DNA of 62,678 nt from Acidimicrobiaceae bacterium (GTDB lineage Bacteria > Actinomycetota > Acidimicrobiia > Acidimicrobiales > RAAP-2). Made by a program: the position numbers and the translations under genes. The DNA is taken from positions 1 to 62,678 of the forward strand of contig PMTF01000028.1 in assembly GCA_003167415.1 (NCBI GenBank), in the 5' to 3' direction. Below the pieces are notes generated by a model that was given only the letters and a program-made list of their open reading frames with translations, did not search any database and was not told where the DNA came from. Each line of letters starts with the position of its first letter. Within the stretch, counting starts at the first letter, position 1. Positions 48,912-62,678 of this stretch are shown piece after piece.

Positions 48912-48982
<71 letters not shown>

Positions 48983-49026
48983 CTCACGTTTTTCGTTGAG
49001 AGTGCAATGGTTTCATGCACTTTCGA

Positions 49027-49200: not shown

Positions 49201-50223
49201 TTACGCCGGGGGTTCTTCGTCGATTGGCTTGGCGATTGCACCGAGGGCGTCAGCGATGATGCGATCGCGATCCATGGTGGCGTGCTGATAGCGCATCGCA
49301 GCGACTGACGACGAGTGCCCCGCGCGATGCATCAGCTCGACTGTCGTCGCACCTGTCGCTGCTGCCAGGGTCAGGCCCGTGTGTCGTAGGTCGTGCAGGC
49401 GCAGGTCTGGTCGACCGACTATGGTGCGCGCACGCTGCCAGGCGACCTGCAAAACGTTTCCCGTCAATGGCACGCCGGTAATGCCCATGAAAACGAGGGC
49501 ACCGGCCTCGGGACCAGTGAAACGGTCGAGGTGATCACGGAGTCTCACATTCAGGAATCCTGGAAGGGCAATCGTACGGCGCCCGGCATCTGTCTTAGGC
49601 TCTTTGACGAGGGATTTTCCTCGCATCGTAATGGTCCGACTCTGTTCAACTCTGAGCGAACCGTTGGCGAGGTCGATGTCCTTTCGTCGGAGCCCGAGCA
49701 GCTCCGCGCGACGAAGCTGACACCACGTCGCGAGCAACACGATGAGACGAAGGTGTTCTGGCATTGCAGCTTCCAGAGCTTCAACCTCCTGAACGGTCGC
49801 CACAGGCCGCTCCGCGGGCCGCTCCACTCCCCCTCCGGCGACTTTGCACGGAGACGATACGAGGAACCCATCGGTTACTGCGGTTCTCAAGATTGCAGAA
49901 AGTAGTCGATACGCCTTGGCTGCGGTCGAAGGATGTTCCCGAGCGAGACTCGCATGCCAACTACGAATCTTCGACGGCGCGAGACCGATCAGGGTTGCAT
50001 TGCCCAGAGAGGGAATGATGTGGCTCTCGAGAAGATAGGTGTAGAGCTCCTTCGTTCGAAAGGCGAGGTCGTTGCGTTGGTCGAGCCACACTTCGGCGTA
50101 CACGCGAAGAGTCATCTTGCCGGCGCGAGGATCGATCCACACACCACGGCGAAGATCGGATTCAATCGTTGCGAGGCAAGCCAGTGCGTCGGCCTTGAAT
50201 GTGTACGCGCCCGCCGAGTACAT
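49201..50223 (-). CDS. int: Tyrosine-family integrase (N-terminus interrupted)
   Basis: The 340-aa frame from ATG 50223 has the core-binding domain (VYAEVWLDQRNDL, ILRTAVTDGFLVSSPC) and all catalytic residues: Arg171 (QLRRAELLGL), Lys210 (EPKTDAGRRTI), His277 and Arg280 (LHDLRHTGL), His303 (AGHSS) and Tyr312 (MRYQH). Upstream in the same frame, across a TAG at 50248-50250, the DNA reads RHFGTVRKRSSGRW then stop then VVYRVEGR, which is the missing arm-binding N-terminus with a likely Gln codon turned into a stop. Translation may restart at the ATG (weak GAAGG), giving an integrase without its arm-binding domain. Confidence 0.85.
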   Translation of the reverse strand: MYSAGAYTFKADALACLATIESDLRRGVWIDPRAGKMTLRVYAEVWLDQRNDLAFRTKELYTYLLESHIIPSLGNATLIGLAPSKIRSWHASLAREHPSTAAKAYRLLSAILRTAVTDGFLVSSPCKVAGGGVERPAERPVATVQEVEALEAAMPEHLRLIVLLATWCQLRRAELLGLRRKDIDLANGSLRVEQSRTITMRGKSLVKEPKTDAGRRTIALPGFLNVRLRDHLDRFTGPEAGALVFMGITGVPLTGNVLQVAWQRARTIVGRPDLRLHDLRHTGLTLAAATGATTVELMHRAGHSSSVAAMRYQHATMDRDRIIADALGAIAKPIDEEPPA

Positions 50224-50406
50224 GCGACCTTCGACGCGATAGACGACCTACCAACGTCCTGACGACCGTTTGCGCACCGTTCCGAAATGTCGCCTCGACG
50301 TAATCGCAGCGTCACCGACTGTTGATCTCTTTTTTGCACCACACTCCAACGGTCGTGGTGCATCGCCGCGATCTCTCCTTTCGGGCCGATTTGAGCGCGA
50401 GACCCT

Positions 50407-51684
50407 TCAGCTTGGAGAGTCTTCGGACTTCGCGCGTTCCCGCGCACGGGCCTCTGCCTTGAGTTCCCGCTCGAAAGTGAAGAAGAGCTCTGCCAACTGG
50501 GTTCCCCGAGGATCGTCGTAGCCACGACCCTCGAAGTGAAATGTGCCCTCGACCGGATCGCCGTCCCTTTCGCCGGCCATGTACTCAGTTCGAGCGTTTC
50601 GGAGGGCCGCGAAAGTCGTTGAGAACGCCCTCGACTTCGTGATCAGTTGGCCCGTGAATCCGAAGGTGTGGGCGTGTTCCTTCAGCCGCAACGATTTGTA
50701 CTTCGTATTTCCGCCAATGTCCCAAGCAGTGAGGGCAAGGCGCTGCAAGTGGGGATCATCGACGAGTGTCACGATTTGGCGTCGCGAACGGAACTGTCTA
50801 GCCAGTTCCTTTGAGCCATCTGTGGTTTTCGCCGCGTACTTGGCAACGTAGGCGGCCACTTTGACGGCCTCCTCCTCGCGGCGCGCCAGGTCCTGGATGT
50901 CGTAGACGCGACCCCACCGAATCGGCCGTCCTTCAACATCGGGCGCCTGCGCTCTCTCAATCGAGGTTCGCATAACCCGTTGAAGGAGTTCAACTGTCGC
51001 CCAGGCTGGCGGTTCAACATCAATCGATTCGGGGCCGTCCAGGCGCAGCACGCAATGGAAGTGCGCCAGGCCACGACGCTGCACCTCGGCCACCTTCAAG
51101 TAGTGCAGTTGGGCGACCGTGCCCAGATTCGGTTGCCCAACACCTCCCTCCGCGGCCAACAACCGACGAATGAGTTGGATGGTGTTGTTCCACAACTTTG
51201 AAGCGTGCGCATTCCACAAGACGGCACCGCGATAGTTGAAACTCTGCTCGCACAGTGGTCGACCTAGATCGATGTCTTGTTCCGTGTGCCGCCGTGAACA
51301 TGATGTGGGTCGACCGTGGACACATAGAGATCCTGTGGATCGAAATCGAGCGACACAACTTCCGTTGTCTCGTATCGTGTGAACGGCGCCGAATGACGGA
51401 GCCGTCAACGTGATGAAGAGTCGCGGATGCGTGCCAACGACGACGGGTGTGCCTTTGCCACCCACGAGTCCGGTGGATACGAGAATCCAGGTGTCAGCTC
51501 TGTAAAGGTACGAGCACGCCGGACAGACAACTTCGCGCCTGTCTTTGCATGCGACTCGTAGATCACGTTCTGAAACTTCGCCAGTTGCAAAATTGATGAT
51601 CTCACCACGAAGGCGAATGGGGTGCGAACAGTTGCTCGAGCCTTGGAGTTCTCGAACTAACTTCGCAGCTTCCTCGGCGTTCAC
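50407..51684 (-). CDS. repSA: RepSA-like replication initiator (pSAM2 family)
   Basis: The 425-aa protein starts at GTG. It matches the actinomycete RepSA pattern: CKDRREVVCPACSYLYRADTWILVSTGLVGGKG, HPRLFITLTAPSFGAVH, CVHGRPTSCSRRHTEQDIDLGRPLCEQSFNYRGAVLWNAHASKLWN, LRVACK... and a C-terminal region with HVHC-type HFHCVLRLDGPESIDV. These proteins start rolling-circle replication of integrative plasmids such as pSAM2. No partition gene is present. A weak ribosome binding site precedes it. Confidence 0.9.
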   Translation of the reverse strand: MNAEEAAKLVRELQGSSNCSHPIRLRGEIINFATGEVSERDLRVACKDRREVVCPACSYLYRADTWILVSTGLVGGKGTPVVVGTHPRLFITLTAPSFGAVHTIRDNGSCVARFRSTGSLCVHGRPTSCSRRHTEQDIDLGRPLCEQSFNYRGAVLWNAHASKLWNNTIQLIRRLLAAEGGVGQPNLGTVAQLHYLKVAEVQRRGLAHFHCVLRLDGPESIDVEPPAWATVELLQRVMRTSIERAQAPDVEGRPIRWGRVYDIQDLARREEEAVKVAAYVAKYAAKTTDGSKELARQFRSRRQIVTLVDDPHLQRLALTAWDIGGNTKYKSLRLKEHAHTFGFTGQLITKSRAFSTTFAALRNARTEYMAGERDGDPVEGTFHFEGRGYDDPRGTQLAELFFTFERELKAEARARERAKSEDSPS

Positions 51685-52279: not shown

Positions 52280-53698
52280 TCATTCAACCGCAACAATTCT
52301 CCATCGCCACTTTGAGTGGAACAAAAGCGCTCTCAAACTCACGCGAGTATTTGCCCGTCCGTATTCTGAGAGCAACTGCAATCCCATTTCATTTCCTGGG
52401 TCCCGTCTAAGCAGATTTCTCAGGAAGGAGTTCCTAATCTTGATAAGGCGCGCCGCGGAACGTCGTGCACCCCGGCTACCGTCTCCGAAATCGAGATACG
52501 TGTACGACATCAGATTCGTCAATCGAATCCACACCAGAGCATCTGCCTGAGTCATTGCCGACACTATTTTTCTACTCTCCATCATGCGAAATGCATCAAA
52601 TTCTCGGTCTATTGCAAACTGGAAGAATCTCAATGATTGTTCTTTCTCTGGCAATCTTCTGGAAATCACAATCGCACTTAGCGTGCATAATCGAGAAGCC
52701 ATATTGCGGGGAAGTGCGGCATACTCGGATATGTCGACTACGAGTTCAAGGTATTTTTTCTCGACAATTGACCAAGATTCATAGAGCTGCAAATCCTTGA
52801 GCAACTCAGCCTCCATGCCTGACTTCCGAATCAACATCTCTAACTCGTAACGTCTTACTCTCGCGGACCGTGGCACCAATTTGAGCCATTGCGAAACTAC
52901 GTTCAAGATGTCCTTCAGTCGTTCAAGATCTACTTCTACAGACGATTGTGCGTCGTTTTGCAGCTCGTACACGAGTCCGCTGAAATCAAGGTCGTACCTT
53001 TCGTATTCTTCTCCAAGCAATGCAAATGGTTCGATCCATATGACACCACATTCAGGGGGATTCTCGGACTGACGATTGAAATTAGGAACCTGGCGATACC
53101 TATTTGACAAATTGCTATAACCCAACTCGGCACCCCAAAAGTCAATGTCGGCTAGTAATTCCTCAAAGCCTTCAATTCGCTCAATGAGATGCGTCCGAGA
53201 AACTTCTCGGACCACTGCCTTCAGAGTCTCAATGGCTTCGGCGGGTCGATCGGACCATCCTTGAACATTCGACAAACCAAGTCCGGCAACAATTAGTTGA
53301 TTGATGAAGCACGCTGTACGCGGACCGCTTCGACCCATTTCGTATTCACGTGCAAGGGAAAGAGCAAGGGAGTACTGAGTTTCCGACTGTATCAACATGC
53401 CGTGATCACTGAGCATTTCTCCCATTACACATTTCACCCAAATCATTAGGTGCAATAGTTCACTCGACGTGGAATCGAGGTCCTCCTCGATAACGCCCTC
53501 CAAGCGCGCAACAACCAAATGTAAGTGCTGCAGCGCAACATCCACTTGATCGAGGGCATAGAGACGTTGCGCTTCTGACACCGCCTCAATTACACCATTC
53601 TCATCCACGCGACCATCAATTCTCTTAGCCACAGGGATAGGTCTACTATCCCGCAGCAAAGACCGGGAGCGGGATTGGAAGCGGGAATGGACCGACAT
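52280..53698 (-). CDS. Unrecognised helical protein encoded after the RHS gene
   Basis: The frame gives 472 aa from ATG 53698, overlapping the RHS gene end by 53 bp; GTG 53632, just after the RHS stop, gives 450 aa. There is no signal peptide. Alternating amphipathic helices (AQRLYALDQVDVALQHLHLVVARL, SETQYSLALSLAREYEM, ADALVWIRLTNLMSYTYLDFGDGS) look TPR-like. AT-rich codons set it apart from the chromosome. I do not recognise a family. In RHS loci the gene following the toxin is often its immunity protein, but those are usually short; a TPR-type regulator or effector is equally possible. Confidence 0.6.
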   Translation of the reverse strand: MSVHSRFQSRSRSLLRDSRPIPVAKRIDGRVDENGVIEAVSEAQRLYALDQVDVALQHLHLVVARLEGVIEEDLDSTSSELLHLMIWVKCVMGEMLSDHGMLIQSETQYSLALSLAREYEMGRSGPRTACFINQLIVAGLGLSNVQGWSDRPAEAIETLKAVVREVSRTHLIERIEGFEELLADIDFWGAELGYSNLSNRYRQVPNFNRQSENPPECGVIWIEPFALLGEEYERYDLDFSGLVYELQNDAQSSVEVDLERLKDILNVVSQWLKLVPRSARVRRYELEMLIRKSGMEAELLKDLQLYESWSIVEKKYLELVVDISEYAALPRNMASRLCTLSAIVISRRLPEKEQSLRFFQFAIDREFDAFRMMESRKIVSAMTQADALVWIRLTNLMSYTYLDFGDGSRGARRSAARLIKIRNSFLRNLLRRDPGNEMGLQLLSEYGRANTRVSLRALLFHSKWRWRIVAVE

Positions 53699-56600
53699 GG
53701 GGGAAACGCAATTGCGGTGGCGCTGGAATGCGACTCACGACCCAGTGCAAGGCGCGTGATGGCGCGAGGAACACGCCGCCAACGTCTCCCCAGAACGAGG
53801 ATTTACCGGGCTCGTGTCGTTTGGCGAGCTTTGGATTCTTTACCTTCGTATCGTCAAAGGTTTTGGCCGAGATTTCCCCGGGCCCAGGCCCACCTCCCGG
53901 TTCGTTTGCCCTGAATAGCGACAAGCAATTTATCGTCGCAGCCAATACGAGACATGCGACCCATCTACCGCTCCCCGCCACGTCACCGAGAGGGTCCGTG
54001 CTGTTCAGTGGGTCGTCGCCCAAAAAGACGTACGGTTGGTTTGTTGCGTCGAACAATGGATCAACACTCATGAATTGATCCGTCGACGGGTCGTAATAGC
54101 GGTCAATGAGGTAGATCAGGCCGGTTGAATCCGTGTAGGAACCCTGAAAGCCGAAGGGTGTGACATCACTTCCCGATTTGATCGTCTGCTTGCCGTACGG
54201 CGAATAAACCGCCAGCTCATCGGTCGCGCCCGATGAGCTGAAGACGCCTTGTACACCAGTCTGATTCGCAACGAGGAACACCGCCGTTGAGCCACTGGCA
54301 GTGGTGGTGATCTGTTCGATCGGCGCGGTGCCACCGAAGAGTAGGTCGCCGTATATGTAGCTGACGTTCGTCGTCGAACCTGGTGTCAGTGAACTCGTGG
54401 CCGCGTCGTTGATGTTCAGCGGTAGTGAACCGCCCGACACGGTGTCCCAGGTCGAGTCGGTCGTCAGAGTAGTTGGAGTTGCCGAAGCAATCACTAGTGC
54501 TCCGACCGACACTGAGGTTCCCGTAGGCGACTGCGACGCGGTTGGACTACTCACGCTCGAAACGTTTGGGTTGAACGCAACCACCTTGTTGCCCGACGCT
54601 GTGACGACGTACGTGAAGCCACTCGTTGAGCCAGCCGCTCCAGAGATTGGCACGTGCGCGTAGCCAACGTAGGCTTCACCAGAGTGAGTCGGACTTAACA
54701 TCGGGTACGCCACCGTCGTGGACGAGGTGTCGTTGTGCGAATTTCCTACTACGTCATCGGACCACACGGTTGACGCTCCCGTGCCATTCGTGTACTCCTG
54801 AGCGTCCAGTTCAACGCCAGTTGAACCAATAGTTCCCGAGTAGGTAACGGTGATCGTCGAACTGCCGGTCGTGGTCACCGTTCCGAGCCACATCTCAATA
54901 TCTTCTCCGTCAAAGGTGCTCGTCGACTTTTGCCACGTCGCCCCGCCACCGCTCACGGAGGCGATGGTGATCGACGACGAATTGATTGACGCCATCAGAA
55001 CAAGGGCGTCGCCCACGTTCTGGGGATTCACCGACAAGGTCGTCCTCCCCGGCGTGCCGGAGCCCTGCTGCAATGTACCGACCGCGGAAATCGTGCCTGC
55101 GGCCGTACTGGCGGTCGACGTGGTCGTGCGTAGTCCGTCACCGTTGTAGGTGTAGCTAGTACCGTTAGCGGGTGTTGAGCCGCAGTTCGTCGCTGCCGTG
55201 CTCGCGTCGCAGAGTTCGCCGTAAGGGTTCCACGCGTAGTCGGTTGTCGTCGTGCCTGACCCAGTTGTGGTCGCAGCGCTCGCCCGCTCTCCGTTAGCCG
55301 AATAGGTGTAGTTGGTCTCCACTGAGGCCGATGGCGGCGAAGAACACGAGTTCGTCGAGGAGACGTTGACCGACCAACACAGCTCGTCGCCCACGTTGTA
55401 GGCGAATGACGTGGTTGAACTGGACGGGGGCACGTCCTGGGTGATCTCTCCGTTCGCCGCCACCGTATACGTGTCGTTGCTCGTCGATGAGCCAAGGTTC
55501 GTGGCCGAAGTAATTTGATTGTTCTGGTTGTAGGCCGTCGAGGCCGAGGTCGAGCCGTTTATGTCCGTCGTGGCCACTCGCTGGTCATTGTCGTAGGTCC
55601 AACTGTCGCTGATGGCCGAACCGGCGCTGAGGCTTGTGAGCTCGCCGTTGTTGTCATAGCCGTAGTTGGCGGTTACACCCGTTAACGACGGATACGCAAT
55701 GGTGGAGGGAGCGTTTGGCGTCGAACTATTGCTGTAGGTGTAACCGGTCGTATTAGCCAACCAGTCCGCCACGCTCGAGACACGTCCCAGCGCGTCATAA
55801 CTCCTCGTCACGATGGTATTCGTGGCTGACGCCGGCGAATTGCAGTTCGTTGACGTGCTGACCGGATAGGCGGTACATGAGACCTCGCCGTCATGGTTGT
55901 AGGCGTAGTTCAATGTCTTGCCATCGCCGTCGGTCGTGCTCGTGAGTTGACCTTGGGTGTAGGTGTAAGTGGTCGTTTGACTCCACGCGGTCGGCGTCGC
56001 CGGATTGCCTGTGTTGTCGCTCATAGAAGTGCGCTCATCGGCGTTGTTGTACCCGTATTGCGTGACCCCGGCCGCGCTCGGTCCCTGGCCGCACGAAAAT
56101 TGAACGAGCGAGGGCATTTTGTTGCAGACCTCACCATTGGGGTTGTAGTTCTCCGTCACCCCTGTGCCGTCGGGATTGACGGTCGTCACGAGGTCGCCAG
56201 CCGCGTCGAAGACGAACTTGGTGGTGGCGCCCATCGAGTTGACGGATCTGGTTACGAGCGTCGGATATGACGCGTCCTCGTACGAGTTCGTTGTCGTGTT
56301 CCCGCTGGGATCAGTGATCGTTAACTTGTTGCCCAACGCGTCGTAGGTCGCGGCGCTGTCACCGCTCGGCGTTGTCGAACACTGCGTACTGCCCGGTGTT
56401 GGAGCCGCATCACCGTAGACGCAAGCTTCACCGTAGTCGTTGTACGCGCTGTACTGGACTGCGGTAATGCCCGCGTCTTGTACCTCGGTGGGCGAGTTCG
56501 GATACGCGAGATCGGCGTAGTAGTTGGAGGTGACATTACCCTTCGAGTCCGCCGTCTGGAATACATTCGTTGTTCCTGGCTCATAGGTCCAGCTCGTCGA

Positions 56601-59345
56601 ACCTCGCGTGCTGCTCGCCACACAACTAGCTCCAAAGCTCCCAGAGGCAAGTAGTTGATAACAGGGCCGATTGTCCCCGTCGTAGAGGGTGGTAGTGAAG
56701 ACCGACGGGGTAACGCTGTTGTTGCCGGAACTAGCGAGGTTTCCCGCCGCGTCGTACGCGTATTGCGTGGTGATGCTGCCAGGCTGATAGCGATAGGACG
56801 GCACTGAGGTGTGTGACACGTACGCGTAGGAGGTCGCGTAGGAGTTCGACGAGGACTGCGAACCCGACTGGCCGGCAGGTGGAATCTGCCAGAGGATGTC
56901 GCCCATCAAGTTGTACGACGCCGTCGTCGTCTGCGGATCGGCGCTCGCGCCAGTATCGCCGGCGTCAATCGTCTGGCCCGCGACGTCGCCCTGTTCGTCG
57001 TAGTTATACGTGGTCGCACCCGTCGGCGCCCCGACGGCGCCGGAATCGTAGGTCGTGTAACTGCTGGTACACGACGGAGGCGCCGTGGAAGAGGTCCATC
57101 CCAGCCTTTGTGCCAGAGCCGGCGATACCTCATAGCAGAGCAGTGAGTAGTTGGCGTAGTAGCCGTAGTAGGTGATATTGCCTAAGGGGTCGATCGCCGT
57201 CACCGCCTGTCCAAACGAGTCATACGTGTACCGCGACGATCCGCTCGGAGGACTACTCGACGGGTTCGACGACGGACCGGGATAACTCCAGGCCAACTCC
57301 GGGATATTGAGCGAGGTCGACTCGTTGAAAGACGACGTCGCCACGTCCCCCAGCGGGTCGGTGGTCGAAATGATGTTGCCCGCGGGGTCCGTGATGATGG
57401 TCTCGGATTGCAAGTTCGGGCTCGAACCCTGAAGCGTGTTGGGGTAGGTGATCTGCTCGGAGGTGTTTGCGGCTCCGTTGCCGAGGTTCCAGTTGTAGAG
57501 CCAGGTCTCCACTTCGCTCGGGTTGCTCTGAGAACCGAGTTGCGTGGAGGTCTCGAGGCCACTGGTGTATTGGTCGACCTCTTTGGGGATGTCCGCAGCC
57601 ACCGTCGTGGGCCAGGACGTTGCGGTACAGGTCGTGGTCGAATTCGGGCACTCGGCGGGATAGAGAATGGTCGTCGTCTGGGTGTCGCCCGATCCAGTGC
57701 ATTGACCCGTCGAACAGGCACTGGTGTACGAGTATGAGGTGGTTGCCGGATTCGTCGGCATGCCGTCTTCTAGTGAGGCGACCATGCCGGGTTGCGAGCC
57801 CGTCGACGACGTATAGGTGATCGTAGTTGAATGCAACGCCCCTGCCACCACGCCCGAGGGCGACGTCGCGTCGGGGTCGTAGATCTCCACCATGTTGCTG
57901 CTGTAAGGGCTGGAAGACGCGGAGTACTCATAGGTCCACGTCGAGGTGCCCGTGCCCGTCGGACTCGGCTCGGTAACGCTCGTCAGGTTGTTCGGCCGCG
58001 ACGACGAACTGTACGTCAAGGAATAGGTGCTTCCCGAAGGATCGATGACCTCAGTAACCTCACTCACGCTGTTGAGCACCTCAACGATGTCCCGGCCGTC
58101 GTGGGCGTCGACAATAGTGCAGCCGTAAGTCGCCGTTCCCGGGCACGCGTTACTTAAGGTAACTCCGCCCTCGCTGGTCGTTCCCGCGCTCACCGAGTAG
58201 TACTCAAGGCCCTGCGCTGGCGAGCCACCAGAAACCGACAGGGCCGCGTTGGACGTCACTCCTTCTAACTGACCGTTCCATGCGTAATTCTGAATTGAAT
58301 CACCGCCGCTCACTTGAAACGTGAATCCGGTACCGGGAGTCTCACTCAGTTGACCCTGAACGCTGCCGAGCGCACAGAAGTTATACGTTGAACCGGAGAT
58401 CGTGTACTTGGCGGTGAAGGGATAGTCGCCGGAGAACTTGGTGGGGTCACCAGACAACTGGCATGAAGTCGAAGCACCACTGTTAGAAGATTCGTTAAAG
58501 GTGACTTGAGACCCGTTTCCTTGATTGACGATCACGCTTTGGCCCGACGTCGTCACGGAGGAACTGAAGTTGGAACTCCAGCCCTCGCCAAAGGCGAGCC
58601 CACTGGTGCTGTTCGCCAAGTCCGACTGAGCTAGTTGCGCGTCATATCCGAGTGACAACGAGAGATCACCGCCAATCGCGGGAGCGTCGAAGAGCGTATT
58701 GGATGTCGAGAAGTCTCCCGTCATCACGTCCACGTTGCTGCCGGAATCCAGGGTGTTCGAGGGCGGGGCGCTACCCGTCACGTCCGATGCGGCGCACGTG
58801 TAGCAGGTGACTGAAGGGTTGGTGTCACCGTAGAAAGCACCGGCCGTATAGGGCGCCTCCGACAAGCCGCTCACCCTCGCGCGAAGTCCTCCGTGCCACA
58901 TTGGTACGCCCGACTTGGTTACGAGTGCTACGTCGCCGTCATTGTCAATCTTGAGATAAGACGGAGTAGTCGCCTCGGATCCGTGACTGACGTGATTGGC
59001 CGCGCGACGTGTCGAGTTCGCCGGAAGCAGGGCGCGCGCGATTTCCGTGACCGCTCCACTTCGCCACGCCACACGACCGTTTTTGAGAATCTCGATCCGG
59101 CCGCCGGTGAACACGTCGACTCGGAAGACGCCGGACGAAGATTCTGCCCGCGCGCCCGGACGAAGCGTCGTTCCTACGTAGAGTCTGGAGGGACCAGAAG
59201 GTGTGCGCGGCGCAGCAGCTCCGGCGGTGAGCGGCACCGCCATCGAGATAACCAATGTGGCCGCCACCGAGGTCACGAGCAGTGAACCGCTTAGCCTCAC
59301 CCAGCCGGGTCGCGAGATCTTTGTGGGCGTCGAGATGGACATCAT
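53646..59345 (-). CDS. Secreted RHS/YD-repeat protein
   Basis: The 1,899-aa protein starts at ATG 59345 (MMSISTPTKISR), fixed by an ATGA junction with the BNR gene; the frame extends 42 codons further upstream but that part lies inside the BNR gene. A Sec signal (LLVTSVAATLVISMAVPLTAGAAA) is followed by many YD-type strands (YTYDSFGQAVTAIDPLGNITYYGY, YDAAGNLASSG), and the RHS core closing motif FGFQGSYTDSTGLIYLIDRY...DPLFDATNQPYVFLGDDPLNSTDPLG near 53985-54165. A ~200-aa non-YD insert lies at about 54480-55105. The C-terminal ~113 aa tip (WVACLVLAATINC ... PLPVFAAG) would be the variable toxin or effector end; I recognise no fold in it. Confidence 0.9.
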   Translation of the reverse strand: MMSISTPTKISRPGWVRLSGSLLVTSVAATLVISMAVPLTAGAAAPRTPSGPSRLYVGTTLRPGARAESSSGVFRVDVFTGGRIEILKNGRVAWRSGAVTEIARALLPANSTRRAANHVSHGSEATTPSYLKIDNDGDVALVTKSGVPMWHGGLRARVSGLSEAPYTAGAFYGDTNPSVTCYTCAASDVTGSAPPSNTLDSGSNVDVMTGDFSTSNTLFDAPAIGGDLSLSLGYDAQLAQSDLANSTSGLAFGEGWSSNFSSSVTTSGQSVIVNQGNGSQVTFNESSNSGASTSCQLSGDPTKFSGDYPFTAKYTISGSTYNFCALGSVQGQLSETPGTGFTFQVSGGDSIQNYAWNGQLEGVTSNAALSVSGGSPAQGLEYYSVSAGTTSEGGVTLSNACPGTATYGCTIVDAHDGRDIVEVLNSVSEVTEVIDPSGSTYSLTYSSSSRPNNLTSVTEPSPTGTGTSTWTYEYSASSSPYSSNMVEIYDPDATSPSGVVAGALHSTTITYTSSTGSQPGMVASLEDGMPTNPATTSYSYTSACSTGQCTGSGDTQTTTILYPAECPNSTTTCTATSWPTTVAADIPKEVDQYTSGLETSTQLGSQSNPSEVETWLYNWNLGNGAANTSEQITYPNTLQGSSPNLQSETIITDPAGNIISTTDPLGDVATSSFNESTSLNIPELAWSYPGPSSNPSSSPPSGSSRYTYDSFGQAVTAIDPLGNITYYGYYANYSLLCYEVSPALAQRLGWTSSTAPPSCTSSYTTYDSGAVGAPTGATTYNYDEQGDVAGQTIDAGDTGASADPQTTTASYNLMGDILWQIPPAGQSGSQSSSNSYATSYAYVSHTSVPSYRYQPGSITTQYAYDAAGNLASSGNNSVTPSVFTTTLYDGDNRPCYQLLASGSFGASCVASSTRGSTSWTYEPGTTNVFQTADSKGNVTSNYYADLAYPNSPTEVQDAGITAVQYSAYNDYGEACVYGDAAPTPGSTQCSTTPSGDSAATYDALGNKLTITDPSGNTTTNSYEDASYPTLVTRSVNSMGATTKFVFDAAGDLVTTVNPDGTGVTENYNPNGEVCNKMPSLVQFSCGQGPSAAGVTQYGYNNADERTSMSDNTGNPATPTAWSQTTTYTYTQGQLTSTTDGDGKTLNYAYNHDGEVSCTAYPVSTSTNCNSPASATNTIVTRSYDALGRVSSVADWLANTTGYTYSNSSTPNAPSTIAYPSLTGVTANYGYDNNGELTSLSAGSAISDSWTYDNDQRVATTDINGSTSASTAYNQNNQITSATNLGSSTSNDTYTVAANGEITQDVPPSSSTTSFAYNVGDELCWSVNVSSTNSCSSPPSASVETNYTYSANGERASAATTTGSGTTTTDYAWNPYGELCDASTAATNCGSTPANGTSYTYNGDGLRTTTSTASTAAGTISAVGTLQQGSGTPGRTTLSVNPQNVGDALVLMASINSSSITIASVSGGGATWQKSTSTFDGEDIEMWLGTVTTTGSSTITVTYSGTIGSTGVELDAQEYTNGTGASTVWSDDVVGNSHNDTSSTTVAYPMLSPTHSGEAYVGYAHVPISGAAGSTSGFTYVVTASGNKVVAFNPNVSSVSSPTASQSPTGTSVSVGALVIASATPTTLTTDSTWDTVSGGSLPLNINDAATSSLTPGSTTNVSYIYGDLLFGGTAPIEQITTTASGSTAVFLVANQTGVQGVFSSSGATDELAVYSPYGKQTIKSGSDVTPFGFQGSYTDSTGLIYLIDRYYDPSTDQFMSVDPLFDATNQPYVFLGDDPLNSTDPLGDVAGSGRWVACLVLAATINCLSLFRANEPGGGPGPGEISAKTFDDTKVKNPKLAKRHEPGKSSFWGDVGGVFLAPSRALHWVVSRIPAPPQLRFPHVGPFPLPIPLPVFAAG

Positions 59346-60601
59346 CGCACCTGGTCCTTCTGCGTACGCACTTGAGGGGTCACTGGGACAGCAACCCCGC
59401 CCACCGTTGACACCGACACCGATTGGTTGCCATCCTGTCCCACGAACACGCAACTGGTGGACGAGTAACAACTGAGTGCGCTAAAGGCTGTTGCCGGGGA
59501 GCCAAAGGAGGAATCAGGACTCCACGTGGAAGCCGAGGTCGTCGTAAGAACCCGAAGCGCATATCCATCTTCGGCCGAGCCCACGGCGACGCACGCCGTA
59601 CTGGAACAAGAGACCGTGTTCACCGTTCCTGAACCGCTCGGCATCGAGGTTGGCTCCCAGCGAGCCCCTCCATCGGTGGTGACGACCTCGTAGCCGGTGG
59701 CACCGGGACCCTGGGAGACGGCCGGGTTGCCACCGACCGCGACGCATGTCGTCGCTGACTCGCACGAGACCGAACGCAACACGCCAGTTCCACCGCTCAC
59801 CGTGCGCGCAGCCCAGGTCTTTCCGCCGTCGTTACTGACGACGATTGACGCACCCACCGCCACGCAAAATGACGAGGTCGGACAGTCGACCGAACCTAAG
59901 GCCCCGAAGTTGGTGGGCAGGATCGGCACGCTCCAGGCGATTCCACCATCCGATGAGAGCAAAAGCTGGCCGGAGAAGGGTCCGTTTTGACTCGGCGACA
60001 CTCCGACACTCACACAGGTCGCCGAACTCGGACAACTAACGCCGAGCAAGGTGGTGTTCGCGGTGGGAATTGATGACGAAGTCCATGTCTTGCCGCCGTC
60101 GCTCGATTGCACCGTCGCACCCTGTCCGACGGCCACGCAGATCGACGCGCTCTCGCAGTCGACGGCGTTGAGTTCGGGTTCGTTCTGATCGAGTACGCCT
60201 TGAGTCCAAGTGCCACCATCATCTTGAGAGGTGGAAGCGACCGCGTTGAGATCGCCGTCGCCGCCGACTGCCACGCACTCATTCGACGTGGGGCACGATA
60301 CGCCGTTGAAACTGCCCAGACCGTCGAAGGCTCCGCCTGACGTCGCAACAATCGGTGCGCCTGATTCGTCGCGGGGAGTAATCCACCGACCAAGGAGGTG
60401 GTCAGCACCAGTCGGCACAGTGTGCTCTACCTTGGTCGATGAGGTCGGACCCGAAAATCCGCCACTCGAGCCAACGGCGGCGACGGACACCGAGGCCAAA
60501 ACCACTATCGCTCCGGCGACAACTGCCGACACCACGAGGGACGGGTGCGAACTTCGGCGACCTTGCGCGCGATGAACGACTCGGTGTGATCGCTTGATCA
60601 T
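59342..60601 (-). CDS. Secreted seven-repeat BNR-like beta-propeller
   Basis: Read from MIKRSHRVVH at ATG 60601, with AGGAGG 5 nt upstream and an ATGA junction with the previous gene, the 419-aa protein has a signal peptide (LVVSAVVAGAIVVLASVSVAAVG) and seven similar repeats. Each repeat carries V-S-C-x5-C-V-A-V-G (for example GVSCPTSNECVAVGG, AVDCESASICVAVGQ, ALSCYSSTSCVFVGQ), and most end in an SxDGGxTW Asp-box. The Cys pairs suggest a disulfide in each blade. Likely a surface-bound adhesin or carbohydrate binder. The 135 codons upstream of ATG 60601 overlap the FN3 gene and are not coding. Confidence 0.9.
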   Translation of the reverse strand: MIKRSHRVVHRAQGRRSSHPSLVVSAVVAGAIVVLASVSVAAVGSSGGFSGPTSSTKVEHTVPTGADHLLGRWITPRDESGAPIVATSGGAFDGLGSFNGVSCPTSNECVAVGGDGDLNAVASTSQDDGGTWTQGVLDQNEPELNAVDCESASICVAVGQGATVQSSDGGKTWTSSSIPTANTTLLGVSCPSSATCVSVGVSPSQNGPFSGQLLLSSDGGIAWSVPILPTNFGALGSVDCPTSSFCVAVGASIVVSNDGGKTWAARTVSGGTGVLRSVSCESATTCVAVGGNPAVSQGPGATGYEVVTTDGGARWEPTSMPSGSGTVNTVSCSSTACVAVGSAEDGYALRVLTTTSASTWSPDSSFGSPATAFSALSCYSSTSCVFVGQDGNQSVSVSTVGGVAVPVTPQVRTQKDQVR

Positions 60602-62085
60602 GATGCCTCCTGAGACGAACGAGATGCGTAGGACGAACTTCGGAGTGACGGCGAGCGAAGTGTTCTTGGCGGGGCTATCTCGCCTCCGATCGAACTTCGA
60701 CGAGGTAGGCGAAGATTCGGACCGGAGCCGCCCGATATTGAACAGATCGAACCGCTTAGAGTGCCGCCGTAGGGACAGGAGTAGGCAACGCCGATATAGG
60801 CGCCATAGGTGGTTACGGAGTAGCAACCAGTTCCGATGAGCTGACCAGAAGCGCACCAGTAGCCGAAGGCTCCCCCATCGGTGCCGTAATTGGCGGCCGT
60901 ATAAATGATGCAATAGCTGCCCCCCCACGTGTCGCCGTTTGCGATGCACGAGGCTTGCGATATGTATGCGATGCGCCAGCACTCGGAGCCACTTGGTCCA
61001 GACCATCCCGAGCTGCAGTAGTACCCGGAGTATTCGTTCGCGGGACCCAAAGGCGACTCGTGAGTGCAGGTGCTTCCACTCAATGTGTCGCCGCTTGAGC
61101 AGTAGTAGTAGCTATTTGGATATGTCGCGTAATTCCAGAAGAAGTTCTCAATCGCGACGTTGGACACGTCACCCAGATAGGTCCCACTGCTCGCTTGAGT
61201 TGCCGTAATGAGGCAAGTGCCGGATACATTGCTCGGAACTGAGAGCGTCGTTCCGCTGATCGAGCAGCCCGTCGCATTTCCGTTTGCGACACTAAAAGTA
61301 ACCGCCGCCGAACCGTTACCCCCGGTCACCACGAGTGAGATCGTGGTGTTGATTGCCGCTCCCGTAGAGCTCACCAGCAAGGGCGCGGTGGCTGTCGTCA
61401 ACGGTGAACCAGAAATTGTGTAGCTCAGCGCCGACGATGTTGACGTCGCGAAGTTCGCATCACCGGAATAGATCGCGGTGATGGAGTGGGTTGCCGCAGT
61501 CAGAGACGACGTCGTACACGTCGCGTATCCCGAATTGACGACCCGGTATTGGCATCCCGATATCAGCGTCCCGCCGTTCTCAAATTCGACCGTGCCCGTC
61601 GCACTCGTCGTCACCACCGCCGTAAATGTGATCGTTGTGTTGAGATTCTCGGGTGACAAGGGAGCGGCGCTTAATGAGATCGTTGGAATTGTCAACGCGG
61701 GTGAGGTGGCGGCAATACTCGTGCCTGCCGGTCCCGAACCACCACTGCTCGAGGCGAAAACCGAAAACGTGTATGACGTTGACGGCGACAGGCCTGGCAC
61801 CGTGCACGAGACTCCCGGGTACGCCACGGTGCACGTTAACGAGCCGGGACTAGATGTCACCGTGTAACCCGTTATCGTCACTCCACTCACCGGAGTGGGA
61901 GCCGTCCACGTGACCTTCGCACCGCCACCGCTATACGAAACCGCTACGGATGTTGGCGGATTTGGAACGGCCGCTTCTGCGGTACTGGCTACAAATGTCG
62001 TGAGACCGAAAATAAGTCCGAAGATGGAAACAGATTCGATGGCAAACCTTGAAATTCTTACATGGCCTGCACCTCGATGCATCAT
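60598..62085 (-). CDS. Secreted FN3/Ig-like protein with Cys-pair repeats
   Basis: First gene of the RHS operon: ATG 62085 follows GGGGGGAAG. The 495-aa protein has a signal peptide (SIFGLIFGLTTFVASTAEAA), an FN3 domain (PPTSVAVSYSGGGAKVTWTAP, about 40-130) and Ig-like domains (PTISLSAAPLSPENLNTTITFTAV; GTVEFENGG; AIYSGDANFATSTS, about 130-290). Four Cys-pair repeats follow (YYYCSSGDTLSGSTC, YYCSSGWSGPSGSEC, YWCASGQLIGTGC, YSCPYGGTLSGSIC). The tail is basic. The repeats suggest stacked disulfide loops. Likely an adhesin or scaffold for the exported proteins of the operon. Confidence 0.9.
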   Translation of the reverse strand: MMHRGAGHVRISRFAIESVSIFGLIFGLTTFVASTAEAAVPNPPTSVAVSYSGGGAKVTWTAPTPVSGVTITGYTVTSSPGSLTCTVAYPGVSCTVPGLSPSTSYTFSVFASSSGGSGPAGTSIAATSPALTIPTISLSAAPLSPENLNTTITFTAVVTTSATGTVEFENGGTLISGCQYRVVNSGYATCTTSSLTAATHSITAIYSGDANFATSTSSALSYTISGSPLTTATAPLLVSSTGAAINTTISLVVTGGNGSAAVTFSVANGNATGCSISGTTLSVPSNVSGTCLITATQASSGTYLGDVSNVAIENFFWNYATYPNSYYYCSSGDTLSGSTCTHESPLGPANEYSGYYCSSGWSGPSGSECWRIAYISQASCIANGDTWGGSYCIIYTAANYGTDGGAFGYWCASGQLIGTGCYSVTTYGAYIGVAYSCPYGGTLSGSICSISGGSGPNLRLPRRSSIGGEIAPPRTLRSPSLRSSSYASRSSQEAS

Positions 62086-62615: not shown

Positions 62616-62664
62616 TCAGCTTCCCAAGCTGAGAACGCGAGTTCGATTCTCGTCACCCGCTCCA
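62616..62664 (+). other. Right attachment site: 3' half of a tRNA-Gly(CCC)
   Basis: A complete anticodon arm (TCAGC-TTCCCAA-GCTGA, anticodon CCC at 62623-62625), variable loop, T arm (GCGAG/CTCGT), acceptor strand CACCCGC and encoded CCA (62662-62664) are present, but no D arm or 5' acceptor strand (GCGGGTG) lies upstream. This is therefore a 3' half gene, not a tRNA. It differs from the left tRNA-Gly(UCC) outside the 22-bp core. It marks the right end of the element or the start of another one beyond the window. Confidence 0.65.
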
Positions 62665-62678
62665 AGTGGGCTGGTTCC

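What the first reader, a model, noticed from the sequence alone, without database searches (positions are those of the whole stretch)
52280..62085. Coupled RHS-centred surface operon on a mobile element
Four consecutive minus-strand genes (FN3/Ig/Cys-repeat protein, seven-blade BNR-like propeller, 1,899-aa RHS protein, 450-472-aa helical protein) are linked by two exact 4-bp ATGA overlaps and one longer overlap. The first three have signal peptides. The unit lies inside the integrative element and has no homologue among ordinary housekeeping operons. I infer a secreted RHS machine with dedicated surface partners, perhaps for contact-dependent competition or adhesion, transferred as cargo.
Basis: partly seen in the sequence, partly recalled or inferred. 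Interest (0 to 1): 0.82.

Follow-up and report, generated by a model that had tools for sequence, protein, structure and literature searches.

The report
Secreted toxin operon on mobile element
A mobile DNA element in a soil bacterium carries what looks like a secreted, cage-shaped toxin against other bacteria, whose close relatives come with a separate propeller-shaped protein that may act as its lid, while the toxin end and its neighbouring gene change like cartridges.

Summary
The four-gene operon is real, with both exact 4-bp ATGA overlaps. Best reading: a secreted RHS polymorphic-toxin locus of the WapA kind. Its core is a propeller gene directly before the RHS gene, in 7 of 7 genus loci and 5 of 5 testable loci of other families (9 of 12 with a 4-bp overlap), against 0 of 9 testable loci of generic BNR proteins; other RHS subfamilies of the genus lack it. 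The FN3/Ig gene precedes the pair in 4 of 7. The RHS protein has a signal-peptide-like start, lectin-like N-terminus, DUF6531 plug, autoprotease aspartates and a 112-aa tip unlike its relatives' tips. Gene 4 is more likely the immunity gene than a surface partner: no export signal, low GC, family in 3 of 99 genus genomes, always beside RHS. The unit is accessory load of an AICE-like element (tRNA-Gly, integrase, RepSA, att repeat near the contig end) without an FtsK-type gene and with an interrupted integrase start. A sister element holds orphan core-plus-tip cassettes in the same slot. New variant of a known kind; untested: the detached propeller gates the cage.

The parts
48912..48983 (+). 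tRNA-Gly(TCC); its 3' half (48938-48983) is the left attachment site
   Evidence: ARAGORN and Rfam; repeat alignment
49201..50223 (-). tyrosine integrase; the frame upstream of this start, which relatives translate, holds an in-frame stop
   Evidence: Pfam Phage_integrase 3.3e-14; comparison of the start with a relative
50407..51684 (-). RepSA-type rolling-circle replication initiator
   Evidence: Pfam RepSA 4e-113
52280..53698 (-). gene 4: 472-aa helical protein, proposed immunity gene; GC 48.4%, GC3 0.50
53646..59345 (-). RHS protein, 1,899 aa
   Evidence: RHS_repeat 8e-22, DUF6531 1.5e-7; Rhs_assc_core 7.3e-15; solved Rhs proteins matched, best 4.8e-12
58890..59198 (-). RHS: bulb (MMBL) lectin-like domain, about residues 50-152
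   Evidence: profile A5 against PDB sequences: Pyocin L1 1.4e-8
58497..58742 (-). RHS: DUF6531, the N-terminal plug of known Rhs cages (residues 202-283)
   Evidence: role from PMC10684867 (passage)
54483..55103 (-). RHS: inserted stretch (residues about 1415-1621) skipped by the matches of close relatives and matched by other frames of the genus
   Evidence: match ranges; no Pfam family
53985..54206 (-). RHS: associated core / C-terminal plug (residues 1714-1787) with D1762 and D1784, 22 apart
53646..53984 (-). RHS: variable C-terminal tip, 112 aa plus stop
59342..60601 (-). exported seven-repeat beta-propeller (YCF48/BNR-like), 419 aa
59342..59345 (-). ATGA overlap, propeller stop / RHS start
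60598..62085 (-). exported FN3 / Big_3_5 / Cys-repeat protein, 495 aa
60598..60601 (-). ATGA overlap, FN3 gene stop / propeller start
62617..62662 (+). right attachment repeat: 38 of 46 bases match the tRNA-Gly 3' half; CCC-type anticodon loop by eye
   Evidence: score 52 against a maximum of 33 in 1000 first-order Markov shuffles

Best explanation
The unit is a secreted RHS polymorphic toxin system of the Gram-positive WapA type, carried as accessory load by an AICE-like integrative element at tRNA-Gly. Proposed mechanism: (1) the FN3/Ig protein, the propeller and the RHS protein are made from one coupled message and exported by Sec; (2) the RHS protein folds into a cage closed by the DUF6531 plug and by the aspartyl-protease plug; (3) the N-terminal lectin-like domain, perhaps with the FN3/Ig protein, holds it to an envelope; (4) the propeller is a dedicated partner of the cage, possibly its lid; (5) cleavage near DPLG frees the tip, which harms cells lacking the partner gene; (6) gene 4 protects the producer; (7) tip plus partner gene are exchanged between loci as cassettes and spread with such elements. 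Shown by sequence: gene order and coupling, domain make-up, tip variability, one case of tip and partner moving together, and the element's outline. Inferred: export, caging, cleavage, toxicity, immunity, and the propeller's role.
For: Propeller-RHS adjacency 7 of 7 in the genus, 5 of 5 testable outside it, 0 of 9 testable control loci. RHS plug and core domains; both aspartates at the canonical spacing in 22 of 22 readable cores. Core identity to the window 67.7-78.4% in five close relatives, while tips match no better than shuffled ones, 0.25 against 0.24. One tip pair is 70% identical over 115 aa on different RHS backbones, and its partner genes are 54% identical over 145 aa. An Ntox33-like tip (sub-threshold) is followed by a DUF4279 gene. 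Orphan core-plus-tip cassettes occur, two of them in the same slot of a sister element with Int 93% and RepSA 92%. Gene 4 family in 3 of 99 genus genomes, all beside RHS sequence; GC 48.4% and GC3 0.50 against 59.7% and 0.73 for the shell. Lectin-like N-terminus. Propeller-like repeats inside the RHS chain of two relatives.
Against: The window's tip matches no known toxin family. Gene 4 is large for an immunity protein and matches no family; its model is poor (pLDDT 51). Window and G039 tips show no clear homology although their partners do. An ORF directly behind the tip is weak evidence by itself: 22 of 23 complete tips have one, but so do 1703 of 2300 random positions. RHS genes of other subfamilies in the genus have no such propeller, so it is not needed by every RHS cage. 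Neither an FtsK-type gene on the element nor an uninterrupted integrase start was found. The att repeat is only 83% identical. The six named genus loci are MAG contigs, three of the seven with an RHS gene cut by the contig end.
Confidence: 0.66

Rival explanations
1. A non-toxic surface adhesin or signalling RHS protein (teneurin-like) with surface partners; the varying tips reflect antigenic or receptor variation.
For: Lectin-like, FN3, Ig-like and propeller domains; the tip matches no toxin family.
Against: Tip and partner gene moving together, orphan core-plus-tip cassettes, Ntox33-like tip with DUF4279 neighbour, conserved autoprotease aspartates.
Confidence: 0.15
2. The RHS gene is a toxin, but gene 4 is not its immunity: it is a chaperone, a regulator, or an unrelated gene that landed there.
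For: 472 aa, helical, no family; window and G039 tips are not detectably alike; another RHS (G219) is followed by a TPR protein; an ORF behind the tip is not rare by chance.
Against: The family was seen only beside RHS (3 of 99 genus genomes; none but the window's own in a sample of 298 genomes of the order). Its GC and GC3 stand apart from the rest of the operon, as stated for Rhs toxin cassettes against shells (PMC8636562, passage on Rhs-CT).
Confidence: 0.32
3. The propeller is an independent secreted factor (ligand binding, or shielding from proteases like the Streptomyces DAIP propeller) that does not touch the RHS cage.
For: Its best fold matches include YCF48 and the protease-binding DAIP; BNR-type repeat proteins are common in the order (47 of 397 genomes at E 1e-20); other RHS subfamilies do without it; Pfam lists no BNR family in the RHS chains with propeller-like repeats.
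Against: Strict adjacency and 4-bp coupling; propeller-like repeats lie inside the RHS chain of two relatives; Tc cocoons carry a gating propeller (PMC8765631, passages).
Confidence: 0.4
4. A decaying element whose operon is no longer used.
For: Interrupted integrase start, no FtsK-type gene on the element, an RHS/gene 4 remnant in G010.
Against: All four operon frames are open, and the overlaps and catalytic aspartates are intact.
Confidence: 0.15

Closest known systems
WapA / Gram-positive YD-repeat polymorphic toxins
   Same: Export-signal-like start, RHS cage domains, DPxG-bounded variable tip, gene downstream of the tip
   Different: Lectin-like instead of LysM-type wall-binding N-terminus; a separate coupled propeller gene and in 4 of 7 genus loci an FN3/Ig gene upstream; carried by a RepSA/Int element
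Tc toxin BC cocoons and teneurins
   Same: RHS cage together with a beta-propeller (that the teneurin NHL domain is a propeller is recalled)
   Different: Here the propeller is a separate exported protein; no TcA or SpvB domain in the four proteins (the rest of the genome was not searched for them). Only the layout is compared
T6SS Rhs effectors (Tse5, RhsA, Rhs1)
   Same: DUF6531 plug, C-terminal aspartyl plug, tip
   Different: No PAAR domain; Sec-type N-terminus
AICEs (pSAM2 type)
   Same: Tyrosine integrase, RepSA, tRNA 3'-end att, rep-int order
   Different: The place of the tra module holds the RHS operon; no FtsK-type Tra on the element
Lectin-like bacteriocins (pyocin L1, putidacin L1)
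   Same: N-terminal domain matches the MMBL lectins by profile
   Different: One lectin-like domain on an RHS cage; sugar-binding motif looks degenerate by eye

Membership tests
WapA-type RHS polymorphic toxin | RHS/YD repeats with associated core ending in DPxG | tested here: met
WapA-type RHS polymorphic toxin | Variable C-terminal tip behind a conserved core | tested here: met
WapA-type RHS polymorphic toxin | Sec signal peptide | tested here: inconclusive
   charged plus hydrophobic N-terminus by hydropathy only; no predictor run
WapA-type RHS polymorphic toxin | Cell-wall-binding N-terminal domain | tested here: inconclusive
   lectin-like domain found, no LysM listed by Pfam
WapA-type RHS polymorphic toxin | Cognate immunity gene directly downstream | tested here: inconclusive
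   linkage and composition fit; position alone is weak; protection not testable here
WapA-type RHS polymorphic toxin | Tip is toxic | not testable with these tools
   no known toxin domain in the tip
AICE | Tyrosine integrase at a tRNA 3' end with att repeats | tested here: met
   repeat 38 of 46 bases, integrase start interrupted
AICE | RepSA-type replication initiator | tested here: met
AICE | FtsK-like Tra protein | tested here: not met
   the only FtsK_SpoIIIE match in the genome is on contig C1; so AICE-like, not called an AICE
Tc toxin | TcA translocator / SpvB domain | tested here: not met
   no such domain in the four proteins; rest of the genome not searched; not filed as a member
T6SS Rhs effector | N-terminal PAAR domain | tested here: not met
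MMBL lectin | Profile match to known members | tested here: met
   but no Pfam match for the window's own domain alone
MMBL lectin | Intact QxDxNxVxY sugar site (motif recalled) | tested here: inconclusive
   degenerate by eye in alignment A5

The most novel reading that the evidence does not exclude
The exported propeller is a lid made in trans for a secreted RHS cage: a split version of the cage-plus-propeller plan that Tc cocoons carry in one chain. It would be a lectin-bearing, Sec-exported toxin machine conserved across several families of an actinobacterial order, with cartridge-like tips spread by small AICE-like elements.
Probability: 0.33. Interest if true: 0.82.

Novelty: new variant of a known kind. 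Interest (0 to 1): 0.62.

Why it matters
How very large RHS toxins of single-membrane bacteria stay closed, cross the wall and open is unsettled (for WapA the passage through the wall is said to be unidentified: PMC12704120, passage). A consistently adjacent, translationally coupled propeller partner gives a concrete candidate part to test. The locus also shows toxin cartridges riding on AICE-like elements in a group that an earlier survey (PMC3218068, passage) reported as free of AICEs, and gives a series of tip and partner pairs from uncultured actinobacteria.

Tried and rejected
Gene 4 as a known family: no Pfam match; in NCBIfam only an acylphosphatase hit at E 0.027, 14.9 bits against a cut-off of 98; no solved relative with the profile, and only weak superoxide-dismutase hits (E 0.12 and worse) for its G039 homologue; AlphaFold model too poor to fold-search (pLDDT 51). 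Gene 4 related to the TPR protein behind the G219 RHS: not supported (phmmer 0.08 in a two-sequence search).

The window's tip as a known toxin: nothing in Pfam or NCBIfam. Window and G039 tips as homologues: 0.20 identity, at chance; their shared layout (two hydrophobic patches around a Pro/Gly-rich middle) is only a resemblance.

Gene 1 as a specific marker: matches at E up to 1e-8 were in 61 of 99 genomes, mostly partial, generic-looking repeats, so only neighbouring copies were counted.

Control for adjacency: 15 loci of BNR-repeat proteins that matched more weakly were fetched. None held an RHS match, but in 6 of the 15 (L129, L133, L134, L136, L138, L139) the frame runs off the contig on its downstream side, so only 9 are a real test.

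Corrected on checking: the GC3 of 0.38 for gene 4 and 0.59 for the propeller (and in notebook entry 3) were read in the wrong frame; one search gives 0.50 and 0.67. The contrast for gene 4 remains but is smaller. The mechanical scan for an ORF behind each tip turned out to have a high chance rate. Confidence was lowered from 0.68 to 0.66 and the novel reading from 0.35 to 0.33 for these. In one search, and for L022 also, the core/tip cut was placed too early in some rows; core values are therefore quoted.

Autonomous AICE: rejected for the window because no FtsK-type Tra is on the element; other kinds of transfer gene were not searched for. A first genome-contig scan with the RHS protein found nothing. 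The second, with the propeller profile, found six loci, five titled Acidimicrobiaceae and one Actinomycetes, all MAGs; their contig lengths equal those of the six genus loci already found, so they are not counted again.
Full report
What is there. The window is contig C7 of a draft genome (2.66 Mb, 29 contigs, 96.6% complete, 3.2% contamination), and the contig ends at base 62678. Both 4-bp ATGA overlaps are exact (60598-60601 and 59342-59345), and gene 4's first ATG lies 53 bp inside the end of the RHS gene. Gene 1 carries fn3 and Big_3_5 domains; gene 2 sub-threshold BNR and Ycf48 matches; gene 3 RHS repeats, DUF6531 and the Rhs-associated core; gene 4 no family above a cut-off. Gene 2 has seven C-x(4,5)-C units, and its model (pLDDT 71 overall; the first 93 residues below 50) matches YCF48 propellers best. 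Genes 1-3 begin with a charged stretch and a hydrophobic segment, gene 4 does not; this is hydropathy, not a signal-peptide prediction. The RHS protein has no second match in its own genome.

The element. A tRNA-Gly(TCC) at 48912-48983 is followed by a tyrosine integrase and a RepSA initiator. A direct repeat of the tRNA 3' half (38 of 46 bases alike) sits at 62617-62662, 16 bp before the contig end; its score of 52 compares with a maximum of 33 in 1000 first-order Markov shuffles. By eye it is of the CCC type. Of the 21 fetched loci of related integrases (21 of the 55 other places listed), 14 hold a tRNA-Gly(TCC) or (CCC), not always close to the integrase. Genes 1-4 take up about 9.8 kb of the roughly 13.7 kb between the repeats. 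The only FtsK_SpoIIIE match in the genome is on contig C1, so the element lacks the usual AICE Tra; a fuller relative on G051 contig C3 has integrase, a probable excisionase (by eye), RepSA and an FtsK-type gene together. The window's integrase has an in-frame stop in the N-terminal part that relatives translate; a downstream start could still give 340 aa. AICEs typically read att-tra-rep-int-att (PMC3218068, passages); here the RHS operon stands where tra would be.

Conservation of the operon. In the genus, 99 genomes were searched with the propeller. Seven places in six genomes match at E 5.5e-92 or better, and the next matches are 1.7e-24 and weaker. All seven lie directly upstream of an RHS gene, and in all seven the RHS frame can start on a codon that overlaps the propeller stop by 4 bp, ATG in five and GTG in two; in the window and L017 an ATG one codon later is an alternative. 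The FN3/Ig gene precedes in four of the seven (window, L015, L017, L018), each time with a 4-bp overlap; in L016 about 6 kb upstream lack it, while in L019 and L020 only about 1 kb upstream can be seen. In the order, 397 genomes were searched with the propeller profile (47 match at 1e-20), and the six best places outside the genus were fetched. Five lie directly upstream of an RHS gene (gaps -4, -4, 2, 23 and 25 bp); the sixth runs off its contig 101 bp after the propeller frame and could not be tested. As controls, 15 loci of more weakly matching, mostly longer BNR-repeat proteins were fetched: none holds an RHS match, but in 6 of them the downstream side is off the contig, leaving 0 of 9. 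Against a general rule, RHS genes of other subfamilies in the genus (L023, L025, L026, L027, L029) and the RHS fragments of G056 and G014 have no such propeller in the stretches fetched. Two of the outside RHS genes (L127, and L128, which is split into two frames) carry propeller-like repeats inside the RHS chain by the profile made here; 20 shuffles of each of nine RHS sequences gave no match at E 1, but Pfam lists no BNR family in them at E 0.01. A partner that is elsewhere part of the chain hints at physical association.

The RHS protein. A profile of six N-termini matches bulb lectins of the PDB (pyocin L1 1.4e-8, putidacin L1 1.1e-7), although single sequences match Pfam weakly (L016, 6e-4, below the cut-off) or not at all, the window's own among the latter. 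DUF6531 is the N-terminal plug of Tse5 (PMC10684867, passage), and solved Rhs proteins are matched directly (best 4.8e-12). The core carries two aspartates 22 residues apart, the spacing of the DPxG-x18-DPxG autoprotease motif (PMC12704120 and PMC10684867, passages); both are present in 22 of 22 readable cores, 2 of 24 being cut too short to read. In the window the first motif reads DPLF, not DPxG. About residues 1415-1621 are an insertion that the matches of close relatives skip.

Tips and partners. Five close relatives share 67.7-78.4% of about the last 100 core residues with the window. Behind DPLG they differ: mean pairwise tip identity of six is 0.25 against 0.24 for shuffled tips (one of the six rows was cut too early there). 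In 22 of 23 loci with a complete tip an ORF of 60 aa or more begins within about 55 bases of the tip's end, and in 13 of 23 the one shown has a hydrophobic segment; but 1703 of 2300 random positions (74%) have such an ORF too, so this alone is weak. Stronger: the tips of two RHS backbones of different subfamilies are 70% identical over 115 aa and their partner genes 54% identical over 145 aa. One cassette pairs an Ntox33-like tip (sub-threshold) with a DUF4279 gene. Several contigs hold orphan core-plus-tip cassettes, a layout known as orphan Rhs/CDI tips in enterobacteria (PMC3150448 and PMC3967940, seen only in the listing).

Gene 4. A distant homologue (19% identity; bit score 37.7 against at most 27.7 for 200 shuffles) stands directly behind the RHS gene of G039. 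A profile of the two finds a third, partial copy in G010, next to an RHS remnant. That is 3 of 99 genus genomes, all beside RHS, and none but the window's own in a sample of 298 genomes of the order. Gene 4 has 48.4% GC and GC3 0.50; the other genes of the element have 57-63% and 0.62-0.73. Linkage and composition fit an immunity gene; its size and lack of family are unusual, and the two tips concerned are not detectably alike.

Cassettes on sister elements. G070 has the same element core (Int 93%, RepSA 92%, tRNA-Gly) with two orphan RHS cassettes in the slot behind RepSA and a right att repeat. G048 has a related integrase (67%), a full RHS gene of another subfamily with a small partner gene that has two hydrophobic segments, and a 46-of-46 att match beyond it; its left end is off the contig. 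RHS cores were thus found in 2 of the 21 other integrase loci fetched. In another family of the order (L128) a related integrase (43%) also lies beside a propeller-RHS pair.

Interpretation and novelty. The kind is known: WapA-like secreted RHS toxins with exchangeable tips (PMC12704120, passages). What differs is the detached propeller, the lectin-like N-terminus and the AICE-like carrier. Tc cocoons are sealed by a gating propeller domain (PMC8765631, passages); by that analogy the detached propeller may be a lid, which is inference. Ten searches of the held library were made. They found no paper with Rhs, bulb-type lectin and toxin; for Acidimicrobi- with AICE only the 2011 survey, which reported none in Acidimicrobidae; for Acidimicrobi- with polymorphic toxin one paper, seen only in the listing. 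The library is partial, so absence from print is not shown.

Limits. No functional data; the six other genus loci come from MAGs, and in three of the seven (L017, L018, L019) the RHS gene is cut by the contig end; the gene 4 model is poor; contact of propeller and cage was not modelled.

Noticed in passing
L101 (G051 contig C3) 545-7325: A fuller AICE-like element (integrase, probable excisionase, RepSA, FtsK-type gene) in a group that a 2011 survey reported as lacking AICEs.
   Followed up: partly
window 50224-50310: In-frame stop in the N-terminal part of the element's integrase that relatives translate.
   Followed up: partly
L030, L032, L033, L015 12778-13347 (G051): Orphan RHS core-plus-tip cassettes, four on one 4.7-kb contig.
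   Followed up: partly
L110 3889-9293 and L015 14602-18996: A shared set near RHS cassettes: proteins that look like an MNT/HEPN pair, an XerD-like recombinase and an 818-853-aa protein without clear family; names by eye.
   Followed up: no
L127 8985-15926 and L128 8363-15378: RHS chains with internal propeller-like repeats, beside a separate propeller gene.
   Followed up: partly
window 54483-55103: Stretch of about 207 aa inserted in the RHS chain, with similar stretches in other frames of the genus and no Pfam family.
   Followed up: no
G000 contig C4:141050-141147 (L035): Another tRNA-Gly 3'-half copy followed by DNA like the element's left end; ARAGORN finds no whole tRNA there.
   Followed up: no
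L124 3629-4315: RHS gene of another family followed by a TPR protein (TPR_12 1.4e-7).
   Followed up: partly
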